Positions 53,362 to 61,576 are shown, counted from the stretch's first letter. The stretch: DNA of 64,000 nucleotides from Candidatus Latescibacterota bacterium (GCA_012270975.1 JAAXHH010000006.1:49009-113008), one strand, 5' to 3'. Notes: generated from the sequence alone by a model not told the origin. Numbers and translations are program-made.

Positions 53362-54081
53362 ATGACCGTCGACCAGGCGAGTCCGGTGTTCCGGGCCCGG
53401 CACATTTCCAAGGTTTACCGCATGGGCGAGGTGGACGTTTCTGCCCTCCGGGGAGTAGACCTGGACCTGTTCGGCGGCGAGCTGGCCGTTTTCCTGGGGG
53501 CGTCGGGAAGCGGAAAATCGACGCTGCTGAACATCCTGGGCGGGCTCGATGTGCCCACGGGCGGCCAGGTCTTCTACCGCGAACGGGAATTGACCGCGGC
53601 GGACGAGCGCGAGCGGACGAATTTCCGCCGGAAGTCCGTGGGCTTCGTCTTCCAGTTCTACAACCTGATCCCGAGCCTCACAGCGCTGGAGAACGTGGAA
53701 CTGGTCACCGAAATCGCCGATGACCCCATGCCGGCGGAAGACGCCCTCCGCCTGGTGGAACTCGAACAGCGCATGCACCACTTCCCGGCCCAGATGTCGG
53801 GCGGAGAGCAGCAGCGGGTGGCCATCGCCCGGGCCATCGCGAAGCGCCCGGAAGTGCTCCTGTGCGACGAGCCTACGGGCGCCCTGGACTACGCGACCGG
53901 CAAACGGGTGCTGGAAGTGATCGAGAAGGTCAACAGCACGCTGGGCACCACGACCGCGGTCATCACCCACAACGCGGCGATCGCAGACATGGCCGACCGG
54001 GTCATCCGCCTGCGCAGCGGCGAGGTCGTCGAGGTATACGCCAACGAGGCGAAGAAACGCCCGGACGAACTGAGCTGGTAG
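53362..54081 (+). CDS. ABC transporter ATP-binding protein (LolD/MacB type)
   Basis: Walker [17 protein letters not shown]; signature [15 protein letters not shown]; Walker [13 protein letters not shown]. Confidence 0.96.
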
Positions 54082-54101
54082 ACTGCCGGAGCGAGAAAAC
54101 C

Positions 54102-56468
54102 ATGACCATCCTGAACCGCAAGGTTTTCCGCGAACTGGCGCGCATGCGCGGCCAGGTCATCGCCATCACGCTGGTGATGGCCTGCGGGATCATGGTCTAC
54201 GTCTCCTCGCGCCACACCTATATCGCCCTGCTGGAATCGCAGGAATCCTATTACACCAGCTACCGTTTCGCCGACGTGTTCGCCGGCATCAAGCGGGCGC
54301 CGGCGCCGGTCGCGGAGCGCATCGCCCGGATCCCCGGCGTCTCCAGCGTCCGCACCCGGATCGTGATGGACGTGAACCTGGACGTGCACGGGCTGGATGA
54401 GCCCGCCACCGGCCGGCTGGTATCCATACCCGAAGTGCACAGGCCCGTGCTCAACGACCTCGCGATCCAGGAGGGCCGTTACCCGTCGATCGGCCGGCCC
54501 GAAGAGGTGATCATCAGCGAAGCCTTCGCGCTGGCCAACGGGCTGGCGCCGAACGACTGGATCGGGGCGGTCATCAACGGCCGCAGGAAGGCGCTGCGCG
54601 TCGTGGGCATCGGCCTGTCGCCCGAATACGTCTACGAAGTGCAGGGATCCGGATCCATCTTCCCCGACAACCTGCGCTTCGGCGTGATCTGGATGAGCCG
54701 GGACGCCCTCGGCGCCGCCTTCGACATGGAGGGCGGGTTCAACGACCTGGCGGTCGCCCTGTCGCCGGAGGCGAGCGAGCGGGACGTGATCGACCGCATG
54801 GATCTCATCCTCGAGCCTTACGGGAGCGCGGGCGCCTACGGCCGGGACAGCCAGATCTCCCACAAGTTCCTTTCGGATGAAATCCTGGGCCTGAGCGTAT
54901 CCAGCAACGTTACGCCGGCCATTTTCCTCGGGATCGCGGCGATTCTGCTGCACATCGTGTTCTCCCGCATGGTGCGTGCCCAGCGGGACCAGATCGCCAT
55001 CATGAAGGCCTTCGGCTACCGAAACCTGTCGATCGGATGGCACTATCTGAAATTCGCCTTCCTGGCCGTATCCGGCGGGACCCTTCTCGGCATCGTGGGC
55101 GGCTTCTGGATCGGCCGGCCGCTCACCGGCATGTACCAAGCCTACTACCGATTCCCCGACCTGGTCTACGAGCTGCACGTCGACGTCATCACCCTTTCGG
55201 CGGTGATCAGCGTGTCCGCCGCGTTGGCGGGCACCCTGCACGCCCTCCGCGCGGCCATGGCCCTGCCACCCGCGGAAGCGATGCGGCCGGAGTCGCCACC
55301 CCACTTCAGACCGCTCGCGATGGAACGCATGGGCGTGCACCGGATGCTTTCGCCGGTCTGGCGGATGATCTTCCGCAACATGGAACGGAGGCCGGCCCGA
55401 ACGATGCTGTCCGCCTTCGGCATCGCCATGTCGGTGGCGATCCTGGTCATGGGACGTTTTACCTTCGACTCCATCGAATACATGATCGACTACCAGTTTC
55501 GTACGGTACAGCGCGATGACGCGGCGGTCGTCTTCGCGGGTCCCCGTCCCGCGCGCGCCCGGTTCGAACTGGCCCATCTGCCCGGTGTCGTCCGCTCCGA
55601 GCCGTACCGCGCCGTGCCCGTCCGGCTTCGTTCCGGCCACATCGTGAAGCAGACCGCCATCACAGGACTCGATCCGGCCGGAGAACTGCGGCAGCTGATC
55701 GACCGGGACGGCCGGGTGCAGTCCCTGCCGCCGGAGGGTATCGTGCTGAACAAGACGCTGGCGGACCTCCTGGCGGTCCGGGCGGGCGATATGCTCACCG
55801 TCGAAGTCCAGGAAGGGTCGAGAATGCAGGGCAGCCTGCCGGCAACCCTGATCGTCGACGAGTTGATCGGCACCACCGCGTACATGGATACCCGCGCGCT
55901 GAACCGGTTCCTGGGCGAAGGCCGCACGATCTCCGGCGCGTATCTCTCCGTGGACCCGCTTCGGGCGGCCGAGTTGTACAGCACCTTGAAAGAGACGCCG
56001 GCCGTGGCGGGGGTCGCCGTCCGCGAGGCCGTGATCAAGGGTTTCGAAGAAACCATCGCCGAAAGCACGAACGCCACCACGTTCACGCTTACCATCTTCG
56101 CGTGCATCATCGCCTGCGGCATGGTCTACAACGGCGCTCGCATCGCCCTGGCGGAAAGAAACCGCGAAATGGCCAGCCTGCGGGTGCTCGGGTTCACCGA
56201 GCGGGAGATATCGGTCGTCCTCCTGGGCGAGCAGGCCATCATCACCCTTTTTTCGATACCGATTGGATTTCTGATCGGATGGGCATTATGTTATCTTGCC
56301 GTGGACGCCACCGCACAGGAACTCTACAGGATGCCGCTGGTCATCACCGGCAAGACCTATGCGTTTGCTTTCCTGGTCGTTACCGCGGCGGCCGTGGCGT
56401 CCGCGTACATCGTCCACCGGAAACTGCGCTACCTGGATCTGGTCGGCGTACTCAAGACACAGGAATAA
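54102..56468 (+). CDS. FtsX-like ABC transporter permease
   Basis: MTILNRKVFRELARMRGQVIAITLVMACGIMVYVSSRHTY; RMVRAQRDQIAIMKAFGYRNLSIGWHYL; LAERNREMASLRVLGFTEREISVVLLGE. Confidence 0.93.
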   Translation: MTILNRKVFRELARMRGQVIAITLVMACGIMVYVSSRHTYIALLESQESYYTSYRFADVFAGIKRAPAPVAERIARIPGVSSVRTRIVMDVNLDVHGLDEPATGRLVSIPEVHRPVLNDLAIQEGRYPSIGRPEEVIISEAFALANGLAPNDWIGAVINGRRKALRVVGIGLSPEYVYEVQGSGSIFPDNLRFGVIWMSRDALGAAFDMEGGFNDLAVALSPEASERDVIDRMDLILEPYGSAGAYGRDSQISHKFLSDEILGLSVSSNVTPAIFLGIAAILLHIVFSRMVRAQRDQIAIMKAFGYRNLSIGWHYLKFAFLAVSGGTLLGIVGGFWIGRPLTGMYQAYYRFPDLVYELHVDVITLSAVISVSAALAGTLHALRAAMALPPAEAMRPESPPHFRPLAMERMGVHRMLSPVWRMIFRNMERRPARTMLSAFGIAMSVAILVMGRFTFDSIEYMIDYQFRTVQRDDAAVVFAGPRPARARFELAHLPGVVRSEPYRAVPVRLRSGHIVKQTAITGLDPAGELRQLIDRDGRVQSLPPEGIVLNKTLADLLAVRAGDMLTVEVQEGSRMQGSLPATLIVDELIGTTAYMDTRALNRFLGEGRTISGAYLSVDPLRAAELYSTLKETPAVAGVAVREAVIKGFEETIAESTNATTFTLTIFACIIACGMVYNGARIALAERNREMASLRVLGFTEREISVVLLGEQAIITLFSIPIGFLIGWALCYLAVDATAQELYRMPLVITGKTYAFAFLVVTAAAVASAYIVHRKLRYLDLVGVLKTQE

Positions 56469-56561
56469 ACCGCTAATATGAAAGAATTTGAACGGTGACG
56501 TTAAGCTCCTTGAGTGGATTTGTCGTTATGTAATTCTAGTGTGGCGCAAGGTTAACTGTTA

Positions 56562-58043
56562 ATGAGAACGCAACCCTTTTCGATAATGCACATATCCGAT
56601 CTCCATCGTTCACCTCGGGATCCGATAACCAATGACGAGTTAATATCAGCACTTGTTCACGACCGAGATCGCTATCTTGAAGAGGAGCCTCGTATTCCAG
56701 CACCTGAAGCTATTGTAGTCAGTGGAGATATTATTCAAGGCGTTCCACTTTACACGGAGGATTTCGCGGAGAAGATAGAAGAGCAGTATTCGGTTGCTGA
56801 TGAGTTCTTAACCGAGTTGGTGCATCGTTTCTTAAGTGGTGACCGGTCGCGTTTAGTAATGGTTCCAGGCAATCACGATGTAGATTGGAACACTGCGTTT
56901 AGTGCTTTAGAAGAGGTGAATGCGGAGGATGTACCTCCAGATCTCAGAGACGAACTGTATTCAGAAGATTCGTTGTTACGATGGGATTGGAAGAACTGCA
57001 AACTGTACCGCATCGTCGATCGAGAGCTATATGCAAACCGACTATGTGCGTTCTGGCGTTTCTACGATCAATTCTACAGTGACGGAATACAGCCACCAAC
57101 TGAACAGAAATTACGCGACACAAGGATGTTTGTTTTGTGCGAGGACAGAATCGGTGTGGCAGCGTATAACTCATGCCATGGGAATGACTGTTTTGCGTTT
57201 CATGGCATGATTGAGCAAGGGAGTATTGCACGAAGCGATCTCGATCTGAGAGACTCTGGGAAAGTCTTGGATCTTCGCATAGCGGTTTGGCACCACAGTA
57301 TTCAAGGTTCACCGTATCGTACAGACTATATGGATGTTGATGTTGTACGCGGAATGATCGGCCGCGGCTTTCGACTAGGTCTACATGGTCACGAACATAA
57401 AGCTCTAGCTACCGCTCAGGAGATTCACCTTCCAGATAGTGAAAAAATGGCAGTCGTTAGTGCTGGATCATTATGTGCAGGATCGACTGATCTGCCGGTA
57501 GGTACTCACAGGCAGTACAATGTTCTCGAGATAGGTAGAGACTTCTGCAGTGTTAGAGCTCACGTCAGGACTATGGAGGTTGCGAATCTGTTTTCTCCCG
57601 CTAGGCTTATCGAGTTCGGAGGAATAAGTTATGTTGACCTAACTTGGAACCTTCCAAGAAATGCTGTCGGTGGCCAGATCAACACACGATCCATTAGAAA
57701 AATGGTATTCATTGAAGAAGCCGAGAAAGCTGCCAAAACGGGTAAACCCGAGCGAGCAGTAGGTATCCTTAAATCACTAAATCTCACAGTTGGCAGTTAT
57801 GAAAGAGAGCTTTATCTGAATGCTGCTTTGGATGCGAAATGTTGGCGCGGTATCTTGGATGTAATAAATCCTCCGACTTCAATCAATGAACTTGTACTAA
57901 GAGTCACTGCATATCTCCAGTTAGACGATCCAATTAACGCCAAAAAAGTCCTTGATAGTCATTCTAGTAGCATGCGGTTACCTGAATCCTTGGAATCTGA
58001 TCTCCGTTACAGGATTAGCGTAAAGGAGGCATTGAGGCGATGA
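56562..58043 (+). CDS. Calcineurin-like metallophosphoesterase with a C-terminal helical extension
   Basis: SDLH, VSGDIIQG, VPGNHDVDW, WHHSIQG, LHGHEHKA motifs; extension EEAEKAAKTGKPERAVGILKSLNLTVGSYERELYLNAALDAKCW. Confidence 0.9.
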   Translation: MRTQPFSIMHISDLHRSPRDPITNDELISALVHDRDRYLEEEPRIPAPEAIVVSGDIIQGVPLYTEDFAEKIEEQYSVADEFLTELVHRFLSGDRSRLVMVPGNHDVDWNTAFSALEEVNAEDVPPDLRDELYSEDSLLRWDWKNCKLYRIVDRELYANRLCAFWRFYDQFYSDGIQPPTEQKLRDTRMFVLCEDRIGVAAYNSCHGNDCFAFHGMIEQGSIARSDLDLRDSGKVLDLRIAVWHHSIQGSPYRTDYMDVDVVRGMIGRGFRLGLHGHEHKALATAQEIHLPDSEKMAVVSAGSLCAGSTDLPVGTHRQYNVLEIGRDFCSVRAHVRTMEVANLFSPARLIEFGGISYVDLTWNLPRNAVGGQINTRSIRKMVFIEEAEKAAKTGKPERAVGILKSLNLTVGSYERELYLNAALDAKCWRGILDVINPPTSINELVLRVTAYLQLDDPINAKKVLDSHSSSMRLPESLESDLRYRISVKEALRR

Positions 58044-60355
58044 GTGAAGCATCAGAGAAAATACCGTTCGCAGTCGAGATAAGTCGTATGATAGAAGTCC
58101 TTGCGGCCCAGATCTATCCGACACCATTCGCCTTGCTACGAGAGAATGTCCAAAATTCATATGATGCTATACTTCTAAGGCAGCATCTGATGGGTGAATT
58201 TGATGCGCGAATAGACGTTTCGATCGAACCTACGCAAATTTGTGTTTCAGATAACGGCATAGGTATGTCACGACAGGATTTACGAGAGCATTTTTGGCGT
58301 GCCGGCTCCAGCAGCAAAAACACCGAAGATGCTCGAGCTGCTGGTGTTGTCGGTACGTTTGGTATTGGAGCAATGGCAAATTTCGGCATCGCTGAAGAAC
58401 TACATGTAGAAACAGAGAGCATTTCTTCAAACGAAAGGACTACATGTGCAGCGTATCGATCTACGTTATCGGTAACAGACGATTGTATCAGTTTTAATCC
58501 ACGACAATCTACCGGCAAACCAGGCACCAAAGTTACTGCAATAATGAAGTCTGAAAACGCTATTCGCGTAGCTAAAGCTGTAGCCTATATTTCACAATTT
58601 GTAGCATTTCTGTCGATCGATGTTTTTGTAAACGACCAGAAAGTTAGTGGAAATCTAATTGAGGAATCTATAGCTGACTTAACTAATGTAACTTGGTCTG
58701 TGCTGGAGAAAGATGTTGCACTTGGCAGTGGAATAGCAGCCGATGTAGACTTGATTGGTGCATTAAATGGAGAAGTCCGGATTACACTAACAAATTTGAG
58801 GATAGAATCTCAAAAGCAACTAAGTGGTCGTATTGTACTCCGTCAAGGAGTTGGTAGTCTACGGACGTTTCGTAGTGGTTTTGGTCTTGCAACAACAAGT
58901 GTCAACTCAGTTTACGGATTCGGGGGAGTCGCCGACTTTTTGTTTCTTGAACCTACGGCGGGTAGGGAAGCATTGACCACAAAAAGTATGCAGGTATTAC
59001 AACATATTGTATCGATCACGGATGAATACGTATCAATACGACTAGCTGAGCGACCAGAAAGCAACGCGAGTACTCCCTTTGCGGCTTGGGTAGCAAGCCA
59101 GCGTCGATACGATCTATGTTCCCAACTACGAGTTCGCATGGAACCCGGTGATTCTCTTCCTTTGCATGAACTCCGGGAATACTCCAATCAAAATCCTATA
59201 CTTGTATACACCGGGACGGATAGGGCAACTGTCGAACATGCTTCCGAAGATCGTCCGATTTTCATGCCGACTCGCGGCTACCCTAGGCACGAATGCGAGT
59301 TAAGTTACCTTCGTAATTACTGCAGGATTGAGGAACTAACGGACGATCCGAAAGTCCTCAGGGAAAAACCATCCACTGAAATCGATGCATCTGAGAAAGC
59401 TCTAGCATTCAGGATCGGATCGATTCTGTCTAACGATTACTTTCTCGATGCACACGTCAAATATGGCACAATCTCCCACGGTCTACCGGTTTTGGTAATG
59501 AAGCGAAAGAAACCTATAGAGATCTTTATAGATCCAAAAGGTGGAACGGTCAACATAGCATTAGGTCTTTATAACGACCAGTATTCTGCGTTTGGACACA
59601 TGGTCAAAGATTTCGTGCGAAATATGATTTTCCCACGTGTTTCCGAATTGGTACCAACTGCAACTAGACAAGGGGCCGAAGCGTTTTTGAAATCGATACA
59701 TCGTTCGAGGGAGTTATTTGAGTACGAGGTGTCTGATCTTCAGAATCTAACATCATTATGGAAAGACTACATGAGTGGTAAACTGAGTTTTCGTCAGGCA
59801 TCGGAAAGATCAACCCGAGTTGCAACTCGAAGTTATCAGTTTTTGGATAGCACGGTAGCAGGTACTGTAAAGGACATTGTTCCCGATGTTATTGATAATC
59901 AAAATATAACAGTAGAAGATAACGGATCGGACTACGGTGCCATGCCTCCTATTCAACGGCTGGACATGGAGACTGATAAGAAACTACTCACTATACGAGA
60001 TAACGAGCCTTCATTGAAAGACTACCGGTGTTTTTTGGCGATTACCGATCGTATACATGAAGAAAACAGCGAGTTTTTCCTCCAGCCGCACCGTACGTCA
60101 GTAGTTTGGGGTGGTCAGAAAGCGCTGTTTATCTTTCAACACCATTCTGAAGAATTCGGTCTGTATTATGATCTGCAAACACGTGATGTAATTAGTGATC
60201 ATTCCGGTGGTGGCGCGGTGATTTCGTGTACTATTGTGATGAAAAACCGCATCTTCATTCCAATTCCACCAGCTATTCAAAGGAGTTTCTTACCAGTGGA
60301 AGGTGAAAGAAAACGATTCGAGGTAAGATGTGATATTCTACATATAGATAGATAG
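58040..60355 (+). CDS. Hsp90/GHKL-type ATPase protein (HATPase), partner of the metallophosphoesterase
   Basis: RENVQNSYDAI (N box), CVSDNGIGMSRQDLREHFWRAGSSSK (G1), GVVGTFGIGAMANFGIAEEL (G2); ATGA overlap with the upstream gene. Confidence 0.88.
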   Translation: MSEASEKIPFAVEISRMIEVLAAQIYPTPFALLRENVQNSYDAILLRQHLMGEFDARIDVSIEPTQICVSDNGIGMSRQDLREHFWRAGSSSKNTEDARAAGVVGTFGIGAMANFGIAEELHVETESISSNERTTCAAYRSTLSVTDDCISFNPRQSTGKPGTKVTAIMKSENAIRVAKAVAYISQFVAFLSIDVFVNDQKVSGNLIEESIADLTNVTWSVLEKDVALGSGIAADVDLIGALNGEVRITLTNLRIESQKQLSGRIVLRQGVGSLRTFRSGFGLATTSVNSVYGFGGVADFLFLEPTAGREALTTKSMQVLQHIVSITDEYVSIRLAERPESNASTPFAAWVASQRRYDLCSQLRVRMEPGDSLPLHELREYSNQNPILVYTGTDRATVEHASEDRPIFMPTRGYPRHECELSYLRNYCRIEELTDDPKVLREKPSTEIDASEKALAFRIGSILSNDYFLDAHVKYGTISHGLPVLVMKRKKPIEIFIDPKGGTVNIALGLYNDQYSAFGHMVKDFVRNMIFPRVSELVPTATRQGAEAFLKSIHRSRELFEYEVSDLQNLTSLWKDYMSGKLSFRQASERSTRVATRSYQFLDSTVAGTVKDIVPDVIDNQNITVEDNGSDYGAMPPIQRLDMETDKKLLTIRDNEPSLKDYRCFLAITDRIHEENSEFFLQPHRTSVVWGGQKALFIFQHHSEEFGLYYDLQTRDVISDHSGGGAVISCTIVMKNRIFIPIPPAIQRSFLPVEGERKRFEVRCDILHIDR

Positions 60356-60394
60356 TAGTACATTGACAGCGAATTCGTTATTGAGTTAGCCACA

Positions 60395-61576
60395 ATGAAA
60401 ATACGTCGCAAGCACATTATCTCCTTCGTGGTCCTCGCCGCCGTCCTGGTCCTCCTGGTCCGCGCGTTCATGCCGGCGCCGGTCCTGGTCGACTCGGCCA
60501 CGGCGGAGATCGGTCCCCTGCGGGTGACGATCAGCGAGGAAGGCAGGACACGCGTAAGGCAACGCTACCTGATCACCGCCCCGGCGTCCGGCCGGCTTGC
60601 GAGACCGGCGTTGAATGAAGGGGACCGGGTCGGACAGGGCGATGAACTGGCGCGCATCACGCCTTCGCCCCTTGGTTCCCGGGAGTCCGCGGAGGCCCGC
60701 GCCCGGATCGAGACGGCCGAAGCACGGGTCCGCGAGGCCGAGGCCAACGTCGCCCGCGCACGGGTAGAGCAGGAAGAAGCGGCACGCGGCAGGGACAGGG
60801 CGGAACAACTCGCTGCGAGCGGCAGCATCTCGCGGGAGCGCCTGGAGCGCGCCGTGCACGCGGCAACCGTTGCCGAACGGACCCTGGAATCCTCCCTCTT
60901 TCGCCACCGGGCGGCCGTCTCCGAACACGAGGTCGCCCAGGCGGCGCTCCTGGCCCTCCGGGAGGAGCGCGGCGATGCCAGGGCCGTGCTCTCCGTCGCG
61001 GCGCCGGTAGGCGGCCGGGTGCTGCGCCTCTTCGAAGAAAGCGAGCGGGTCGTCGCCGCGGGCACGCCCCTGATGGAAGTGGGCGATCCGGGCGACATGG
61101 AGGTGACGATCGACGTGCTGTCCACCGACGCCGTGAAGGTCGACGTCGGCCAGACGGTGTGGATTGAAGAGTGGGGCGGACCCGATCCGCTGTCCGGAAG
61201 GGTGAGCCGGATTGAGCCAGCCGCGTTCACGCGCGTGTCCGCACTGGGCGTGGATGAACAGCGGGTCAACGTCATCGTGGATCTGGACGAAACGCCGGCG
61301 GATCTGGGCGATGGTTACCGTGTCACGGGACGGATCGTCGTCTGGGAGAAAGAGGATGTGCTCAAGGTCCCTTCAAGCGCTTTGTTCAGAATAGGCGAAA
61401 GCTGGGGGGTCTTCGTCGTCGAAGAAGGCGTGGCGAGGACGCGGGTAGTATCGGTGGGACAGCGAAACGGAATCGAGGCGGAAATACTCGAAGGCCTCGC
61501 GGCCGGCGACCCCGTCATCCTGCATCCCAACCCCCGCATTGCGGACGGGATCGGGGTAGAGACCCGGACGGACTGA
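60395..61576 (+). CDS. HlyD/RND-type periplasmic adaptor subunit
   Basis: N-terminal TM helix; YLITAPASGRLARPALNEGDRVGQGDELARI; coiled-coil region; SVAAPVGGRVLRLFEESERVVAAGTPLMEVGDPGDMEVTIDV. Confidence 0.92.
   Translation: MKIRRKHIISFVVLAAVLVLLVRAFMPAPVLVDSATAEIGPLRVTISEEGRTRVRQRYLITAPASGRLARPALNEGDRVGQGDELARITPSPLGSRESAEARARIETAEARVREAEANVARARVEQEEAARGRDRAEQLAASGSISRERLERAVHAATVAERTLESSLFRHRAAVSEHEVAQAALLALREERGDARAVLSVAAPVGGRVLRLFEESERVVAAGTPLMEVGDPGDMEVTIDVLSTDAVKVDVGQTVWIEEWGGPDPLSGRVSRIEPAAFTRVSALGVDEQRVNVIVDLDETPADLGDGYRVTGRIVVWEKEDVLKVPSSALFRIGESWGVFVVEEGVARTRVVSVGQRNGIEAEILEGLAAGDPVILHPNPRIADGIGVETRTD

What the first reader, a model, noticed from the sequence alone, without database searches (positions are those of the whole stretch)
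56469..60394. AT-rich metallophosphoesterase + Hsp90/GHKL ATPase module inserted inside an ABC efflux operon (candidate undescribed, possibly defence-type, system)
Seen: two genes overlap by ATGA (58040-58043), so they are very likely translationally coupled. One encodes a calcineurin-like phosphoesterase with all metal motifs and a helical C-terminal extension. The other encodes a 771-aa protein with Hsp90-type N, G1 and G2 boxes but not the overall sequence of HtpG. The region is visibly AT-richer than its flanks and uses different codons. It separates an ABC ATPase and FtsX permease (53362-56468) from their expected HlyD adaptor (60395-61576). Established: GHKL/MORC-like ATPases paired with nucleases or phosphoesterases recur in prokaryotic conflict systems. 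Inference: this is a horizontally acquired two-component module in which the ATPase acts as sensor or switch and the phosphoesterase as effector. I cannot confirm novelty without a search.
Basis: partly seen in the sequence, partly recalled or inferred. Interest (0 to 1): 0.88.

Follow-up and report, generated by a model that had tools for sequence, protein, structure and literature searches.

The report
Mobile Hsp90-like ATPase plus phosphoesterase pair
A two-gene cassette coding for a metal-dependent phosphoesterase and a divergent Hsp90-family ATPase has jumped into this bacterial genome; the same pair recurs on unrelated plasmids, prophages and defence islands, which makes it a strong candidate for an as yet unnamed antiviral system.

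Summary
A 493-aa calcineurin-like metallophosphoesterase (MPE, 56562-58043) and a 771-aa Hsp90/GHKL ATPase (58040-60355) overlap by ATGA in a 3,926-bp, 45%-GC insert between an FtsX permease and its HlyD adaptor. Ten congeneric sites have 13-14 bp at that junction instead: a clean insertion, not part of the efflux operon. The pair is conserved as a unit. Eight further loci with readable upstream DNA (Nitrospira MAG, Pseudomonas megaplasmid, Rhizobium plasmid, three IMG/VR contigs, two divergent genomes) all have an MPE immediately upstream on the same strand; none of the other GHKL loci fetched has one. Two divergent pairs sit between HmaA and HmaB, one beside a complete Menshen; another neighbours Lamassu; two lie in phage-like contigs. 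No PADLOC or NCBIfam model names either protein; the nearest curated MPEs are the anti-phage DS-9A and DS-8. The modelled ATPase matches full-length Hsp90s. Best reading: a new candidate defence system in which an Hsp90-type ATPase gates an MPE effector. Defence is inferred from context; activity, trigger and substrate are untested.

The parts
56469..60394 (.). Horizontally acquired insert, 3,926 bp, about 45% GC, replacing a 13-14 bp FtsX-HlyD spacer
   Evidence: Empty sites in ten congeneric loci; GC profile
56562..58043 (+). Metallophosphoesterase (493 aa): catalytic domain about 1-340, helical TPR-like tail about 375-493; presumed effector
   Evidence: Pfam PF00149 1.1e-9; best curated relative DS9_1_antiphage 3.9e-16, below cut-off; model and Foldseek match SMPDL3A, Lmo2642, Mre11, TPR folds; motifs invariant
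58040..60355 (+). Hsp90-family GHKL ATPase (771 aa), divergent beyond the N domain; presumed switch/sensor
   Evidence: HATPase_c_3 2.3e-11; PRK14083 HSP90 family N domain 2.4e-25; modelled fold matches full-length TRAP1/HtpG/Hsp90, E 2.6e-20
58040..58043 (+). ATGA overlap of MPE stop and ATPase start (translational coupling, inferred)
   Evidence: Sequence; the same 4-bp overlap in L042, L044, L045, L046 and abutting or near-abutting in L043, L078, L074, L090
56478..56483 (+). ATGAAA, left border; possible 6-bp target duplication with 60395-60400
   Evidence: Comparison with empty sites; suggestive only
60395..60400 (+). ATGAAA, right border (start of HlyD gene)
   Evidence: suggestive only

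Best explanation
This is a mobile two-gene conflict module, most likely an anti-phage defence system not yet named. Shown: two coupled genes, conserved as a unit over large evolutionary distance, inserted as accessory cargo in chromosomes, conjugative plasmids and phage-like contigs, and found inside or next to known defence systems. Inferred: the Hsp90-type ATPase acts as an ATP-dependent conformational clamp that senses an infection cue (a phage protein or a perturbed host client) through its divergent middle and C-terminal regions, and in response releases or activates the metallophosphoesterase. The phosphoesterase then hydrolyses phosphodiesters, either nucleic acid (Mre11-like) or a nucleotide signal or cofactor (SMPDL3A-like), blocking phage growth or arresting the cell. 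The architecture mirrors MPE-STAND/NACHT fusions such as DS-8, with the P-loop switch replaced by a separate Hsp90-like switch.
For: Empty sites in ten congeneric loci and no full-length copy in the 13 other sampled genomes of the family. MPE directly upstream of the full-length ATPase in 9/9 readable loci; in none of about 48 GHKL loci that lack full-length similarity, though many of those had only 1.5-kb flanks. Compatible trees for the two proteins with shared well-supported pairs. Defence neighbours: HmaA-[pair]-HmaB in G396; HmaA-[Menshen NsnABC]-[pair]-HmaB in G331; Lamassu LmuA/LmuB on the P. aeruginosa megaplasmid. Phage carriage: L046 with Mu transposase, GemA and Mor; L078 with a portal gene. 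The MPE is closest to DS-9A/DS-8 among curated families, whose metallophosphatase residues are required for defence (PMC13092281). Both active sites are invariant. VcSduA is a precedent for a GHKL ATPase required together with a nuclease for defence (PMC12137116).
Against: No phage or biochemical assay. The window copy itself has no recognised defence neighbour among the genes tested, and the Rhizobium copy none named. The DS-9/DS-8 similarity is superfamily-level, far below the curated cut-offs (59 vs 420 bits; 32 vs 790). The direction of control (ATPase switches MPE) is analogy. The MPE substrate is unknown. MPE model confidence is moderate (mean pLDDT 62.9).
Confidence: 0.72

Rival explanations
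1. Addiction (toxin-antitoxin-like) module: the MPE is a toxin kept folded or inhibited by the Hsp90-like protein, stabilising plasmids and prophages rather than fighting phages.
For: Overlapping two-gene operon; presence on conjugative plasmids and phage-like contigs. A chaperone-like partner could hold a toxin in check (inference).
Against: Proteins of 493 and 771 aa are large for toxin-antitoxin pairs; both active sites are strictly conserved; copies lie within chromosomal Hma and Menshen loci, where addiction has no obvious role. The boundary to abortive-infection defence is blurred.
Confidence: 0.12
2. Counter-defence or anti-restriction cargo: the MPE destroys host immune signals such as cyclic oligonucleotides so that the element can spread.
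For: The MPE model resembles SMPDL3A, which PMC13092281 describes as cleaving cGAMP; carriage on plasmids and phage contigs; a phage MPE is reported to subvert mycobacterial defence (PMC12287305).
Against: Two pairs are embedded between HmaA and HmaB in cellular genomes and one neighbours Menshen; the window copy is a lone chromosomal insertion; nothing explains the need for an Hsp90-type ATPase.
Confidence: 0.08
3. Client-dephosphorylation pair: an Hsp90-like chaperone and a phosphatase acting on client proteins, a bacterial analogue of eukaryotic Hsp90-PP5, in stress or signalling rather than immunity.
For: Hsp90-fold ATPase together with a calcineurin-like phosphoesterase bearing a TPR-like helical tail; rat PP5 is among the weaker Foldseek hits.
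Against: Rare and patchy: no full-length member in 399 genomes of one sampled phylum, two in another's 85; GC-deviant mobile cargo; the MPE is nearer to DS-8/DS-9/Mre11/SMPDL3A than to PPP phosphatases; domain order is the reverse of PP5.
Confidence: 0.06
4. Genuine part of the ABC efflux operon, or an assembly artefact.
For: It lies between FtsX and HlyD on the same strand.
Against: Ten congeneric FtsX-HlyD junctions are 13-14 bp with no insert; both flanks are host-like, up to about 95% identical to congeners, inside a 113-kb contig; the pair occurs in unrelated contexts.
Confidence: 0.02

Closest known systems
DS-9 (DefensePredictor system; NF053862 DS9_1_antiphage)
   Same: Two-gene defence system whose first gene carries a metallophosphatase domain required for defence (PMC13092281); closest curated family to this MPE (3.9e-16).
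   Different: Second gene of DS-9 is a HAD phosphatase, not an Hsp90-type ATPase. In DS-9A the MPE matches profile positions 195-479 of 486; here it is N-terminal with a helical tail. Score 59 against a cut-off of 420.
DS-8 and related MPE-STAND/NACHT proteins (NF053861; PADLOC PDC-S60)
   Same: N-terminal MPE as presumed effector controlled by an NTPase; defence lost on mutating either domain (PMC13092281). The divergent pair's MPE scores 8e-39 to DS-8 and 1e-42 to PDC-S60.
   Different: Single fused protein with a P-loop (NACHT) NTPase; here two proteins and an Hsp90-fold ATPase.
VcSduA (Shedu type I-D, paraMORC3)
   Same: GHKL ATPase required together with an effector for anti-phage activity (PMC12137116).
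   Different: Fused, with a PD-(D/E)xK nuclease effector; the GHKL domain belongs to paraMORC, not Hsp90.
HtpG / HSP90 family protein PRK14083
   Same: N-terminal ATPase domain (hhalign 98.9% over 188 columns; 2.4e-25 to PRK14083); modelled fold similar over about 600-670 columns.
   Different: No sequence-level match beyond the N domain; longer (771 aa); constant MPE neighbour; the genome has its own HtpG elsewhere.
Eukaryotic Hsp90-PP5
   Same: Hsp90-fold ATPase partnered with a calcineurin-superfamily enzyme carrying a TPR-like domain (own knowledge).
   Different: PP5 is a protein phosphatase with N-terminal TPR; no MEEVD-like tail here; resemblance may be convergent.

Membership tests
HtpG / canonical Hsp90 chaperone | Reaches the curated HtpG equivalog score (NF003555, 371 bits) | tested here: not met
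   52.9 bits, N domain only; the genome's true HtpG scores 738.7
HtpG / canonical Hsp90 chaperone | Hsp90 N-M-C fold | tested here: met
   AlphaFold2 model (pLDDT 73.6) matches full-length TRAP1, HtpG and Hsp90, E 2.6e-20, prob 1.00; global TM-scores are only 0.33-0.48 in the leading full-length hits, so domain placement differs or is poorly modelled
GHKL ATPase superfamily | N, G1 and G2 boxes | tested here: met
   E35, N39, D71-NGIGM, GxFGIG invariant in ten members; Pfam PF13589 above cut-off
MORC / paraMORC | Closest match to MORC/MutL-type rather than Hsp90-type; R-M helicase operon | tested here: not met
   Hsp90 models outrank MutL and topoisomerase VI; no helicase in the window insert
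Calcineurin-like metallophosphoesterase | DxH, GDx, GNHD, H, GHxH metal motifs | tested here: met
   PF00149 above cut-off; residues invariant
DS-9 | DS9_1 equivalog score of 420 bits; HAD phosphatase second gene | tested here: not met
   59 bits; second gene is Hsp90-like
DS-8 | MPE fused to NACHT; 790 bits | tested here: not met
   32.4 bits; no NACHT domain
Any system in PADLOC 2.0.0 | Full-length match to a system model | tested here: not met
   Only weak partial matches (PDC-S60 3e-7, Effector 1.5e-5, REase_II 6e-6, TmtA 7e-4)
Anti-phage defence system (functional class) | Genetic linkage to known defence genes or mobile-element carriage | tested here: met
   Hma, Menshen and Lamassu neighbours; phage-like contigs
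Anti-phage defence system (functional class) | Protection in a phage challenge | not testable with these tools
   Needs a wet-lab assay

The most novel reading that the evidence does not exclude
A previously unnamed prokaryotic immune system in which a dedicated Hsp90 paralogue, not a P-loop STAND/NACHT/ABC protein, is the infection-sensing switch for a metallophosphoesterase effector, that is, Hsp90-type machinery used as an immune receptor or gate in bacteria.
Probability: 0.5. Interest if true: 0.85.

Novelty: new variant of a known kind. Interest (0 to 1): 0.74.

Why it matters
If confirmed, it would add an Hsp90-family ATPase to the switches used by bacterial immunity and a third genetic setting, after DS-8 and DS-9, for metallophosphoesterases as antiviral effectors whose substrate is unknown. 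Hsp90 is a long-studied chaperone with known support roles in plant and animal immune-receptor function (own knowledge), so a bacterial Hsp90 paralogue wired directly to an effector would give a tractable test of how an Hsp90 clamp can signal. The two genes are small enough to clone whole.

Tried and rejected
Efflux-operon membership: rejected by empty sites. MORC/paraMORC filing: Hsp90 models score higher. Membership of DS-8/DS-9: tested and not met. Viral-contig scan with the four-row MPE alignment found nothing; the deeper alignment recovered two pairs and two MPE-STAND/NACHT fusions. Phage records: only N-domain GHKL matches. E. coli genomes with the L081 ATPase gene: no DNA match. L081/L082 start at the ATPase because the record is cut there, so they cannot test the pairing. 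Pattern search for an alphaproteobacterial 16S probe to find a sampling centre: no hit. Terminal inverted repeats: none convincing. Promoter and terminator scan: not above shuffles. No paper in the held library joins Hsp90 and metallophosphoesterase in defence; preprints, most subscription papers and the DefensePredictor supplements were not readable. Profile comparison for a middle- or C-domain sequence match to HtpG found only the N domain.

Full report
What is there. ORFs 56562-58043 (493 aa) and 58040-60355 (771 aa) overlap by ATGA. GC falls from 0.63-0.66 to 0.44-0.46 over the insert and returns to 0.68; GC3 is 0.40/0.36 against 0.75-0.87 in neighbours. Pfam gives calcineurin-like phosphoesterase and HATPase_c_3 for the pair, and ABC ATPase, FtsX and HlyD for the flanks.

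The insertion. In ten congeneric loci the FtsX stop codon and HlyD start codon are 13-14 bp apart; in the window they are 3,926 bp apart, with both flanks host-like. No full-length member of the ATPase family was found in the 13 other sampled genomes of the same family. This shows acquisition in the window lineage. ATGAAA occurs at both borders (56478-56483, 60395-60400), which fits a 6-bp target duplication, but there is no transposase or convincing terminal inverted repeat, so the mechanism of insertion is unresolved.

Conservation of the pair. Full-length ATPase homologues occur in a Nitrospira MAG (74% identity; L042; MPE frameshifted and ATPase missing residues 337-571, so probably a decaying copy), P. 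aeruginosa megaplasmid pPUV-9 and two sister plasmid records (33.5%), a Rhizobium plasmid (33.5%), three IMG/VR contigs (L045, L046, L078) and, as a divergent branch (about 22-25%), genomes G331 and G396. In every one with readable upstream sequence the gene directly upstream on the same strand is an MPE of the same alignable family; none of the other GHKL or HtpG loci fetched has one nearby, with the caveat that many of those controls carry short flanks. The Rhizobium MPE is missed in the public annotation. Trees of the two proteins are compatible (shared pairs window+L042, L044+L045, L074+L090), consistent with inheritance as a unit, though the MPE tree is weakly resolved. The family is rare: beyond the window's own copy, one full-length member in 384 sampled genomes, two in the 85 genomes of G331's phylum (one of them G331 again) and none among 399 of another phylum.

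Context. In G396 the pair lies between HmaA (1e-169) and HmaB (4.6e-112); in G331 the order is HmaA (6.9e-169), NsnA/NsnB/NsnC of Menshen (3.6e-141, 8.3e-111, 5.5e-52), MPE, ATPase, HmaB (1.3e-114). The P. aeruginosa plasmid copy lies about 3-5 kb from LmuA and LmuB of Lamassu (1.8e-57, 1.2e-145). L046 lies in a Mu-like phage genome with GemA, Mor and Mu transposase, beside a 36%-GC nSTAND3-like NTPase. L078 carries a phage portal gene. L045 has ParB/RepB and a serine recombinase. The Nitrospira copy follows a DNA methyltransferase. The window copy has no recognised defence neighbour among the flanking genes tested. Placement inside cellular defence islands argues for defence over counter-defence.

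The proteins. The MPE retains all metal ligands, invariant in nine members including the divergent branch. Its model (moderate, pLDDT 62.9) has the MPE fold and a helical repeat tail; Foldseek finds a YydB integrative model, SMPDL3A, Lmo2642, purple acid phosphatases and Mre11, plus TPR domains for the tail. The nearest curated families are the anti-phage DS-9A and DS-8 proteins, well below their cut-offs. MPE scans also returned a 990-aa MPE-nSTAND6 protein and a 1185-aa MPE protein with an EruA-like NACHT stretch and an EgtB/sulfatase-modifying-type domain, the classical effector-switch architecture. In PMC13092281 the metallophosphatase residues of DS-8 and DS-9A and the NACHT residue of DS-8 are needed for defence. 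The ATPase N domain is Hsp90-type; its model (pLDDT 73.6) matches complete Hsp90s over 600-670 columns with low global TM-scores. An invariant PTAGR motif (Arg309, mostly PTAGREAL) resembles the Hsp90 middle-domain SRE motif that holds the catalytic arginine (own knowledge); this correspondence is inferred from motif and fold, not tested. The genome's own HtpG is a different gene.

Mechanism. Shown: coupling, conservation, intact active sites, mobility, defence-island association. Inferred: ATP-driven closure of the Hsp90-like dimer, triggered by an infection cue, gates the MPE. The precedent for GHKL control of a defence effector is VcSduA, where E27A and the nuclease mutant both abolish activity (PMC12137116). 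I put about 0.72 on defence, about 0.5 on Hsp90-as-switch with MPE-as-effector, and do not commit strongly between nucleic-acid and nucleotide-signal substrates.

Novelty. Neither protein reaches any named family in PADLOC 2.0.0 or NCBIfam 20.0; public annotation calls the homologues only 'metallophosphoesterase' and 'ATP-binding protein'. The held literature has no such pair, but coverage excludes preprints, most subscription journals and supplements. I file it as a new variant of a known kind (NTPase switch plus effector), with an unusual switch.

Noticed in passing
L085:717-3689 (+): Phage-contig protein of 990 aa with a DS-8-like metallophosphoesterase domain fused to nSTAND6: a likely STAND-type defence protein.
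   Followed up: partly
L086:7983-11540 (+): 1185-aa protein with DS-8-like MPE domain, an EruA-like NACHT stretch and a C-terminal EgtB/sulfatase-modifying-type domain on an IMG/VR contig.
   Followed up: partly
L046:4144-5880 (+): AT-rich (36% GC) nSTAND3-like NTPase gene beside the pair in a Mu-like phage genome; probable further cargo.
   Followed up: partly
L074:3253-17864 (-): Menshen (NsnABC) and the MPE-ATPase pair nested between HmaA and HmaB, suggesting the Hma locus is an insertion spot for other defence modules.
   Followed up: partly
L042:6521-9608 (+): Nitrospira copy looks decayed: MPE frameshift and in-frame loss of ATPase residues 337-571.
   Followed up: partly
L044:8523-9995 (+): Rhizobium plasmid MPE (TTG start, 490 aa) is covered only by hypothetical-protein fragments in the public annotation.
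   Followed up: yes
L081:1-2310 (+): ATPase homologue at 33% GC in a 48%-GC provirus record cut at the ATPase start, so its MPE, if any, lies outside the record.
   Followed up: partly
window:56478-56483 and 60395-60400: ATGAAA at both insertion borders, a possible 6-bp target duplication without an encoded transposase.
   Followed up: partly
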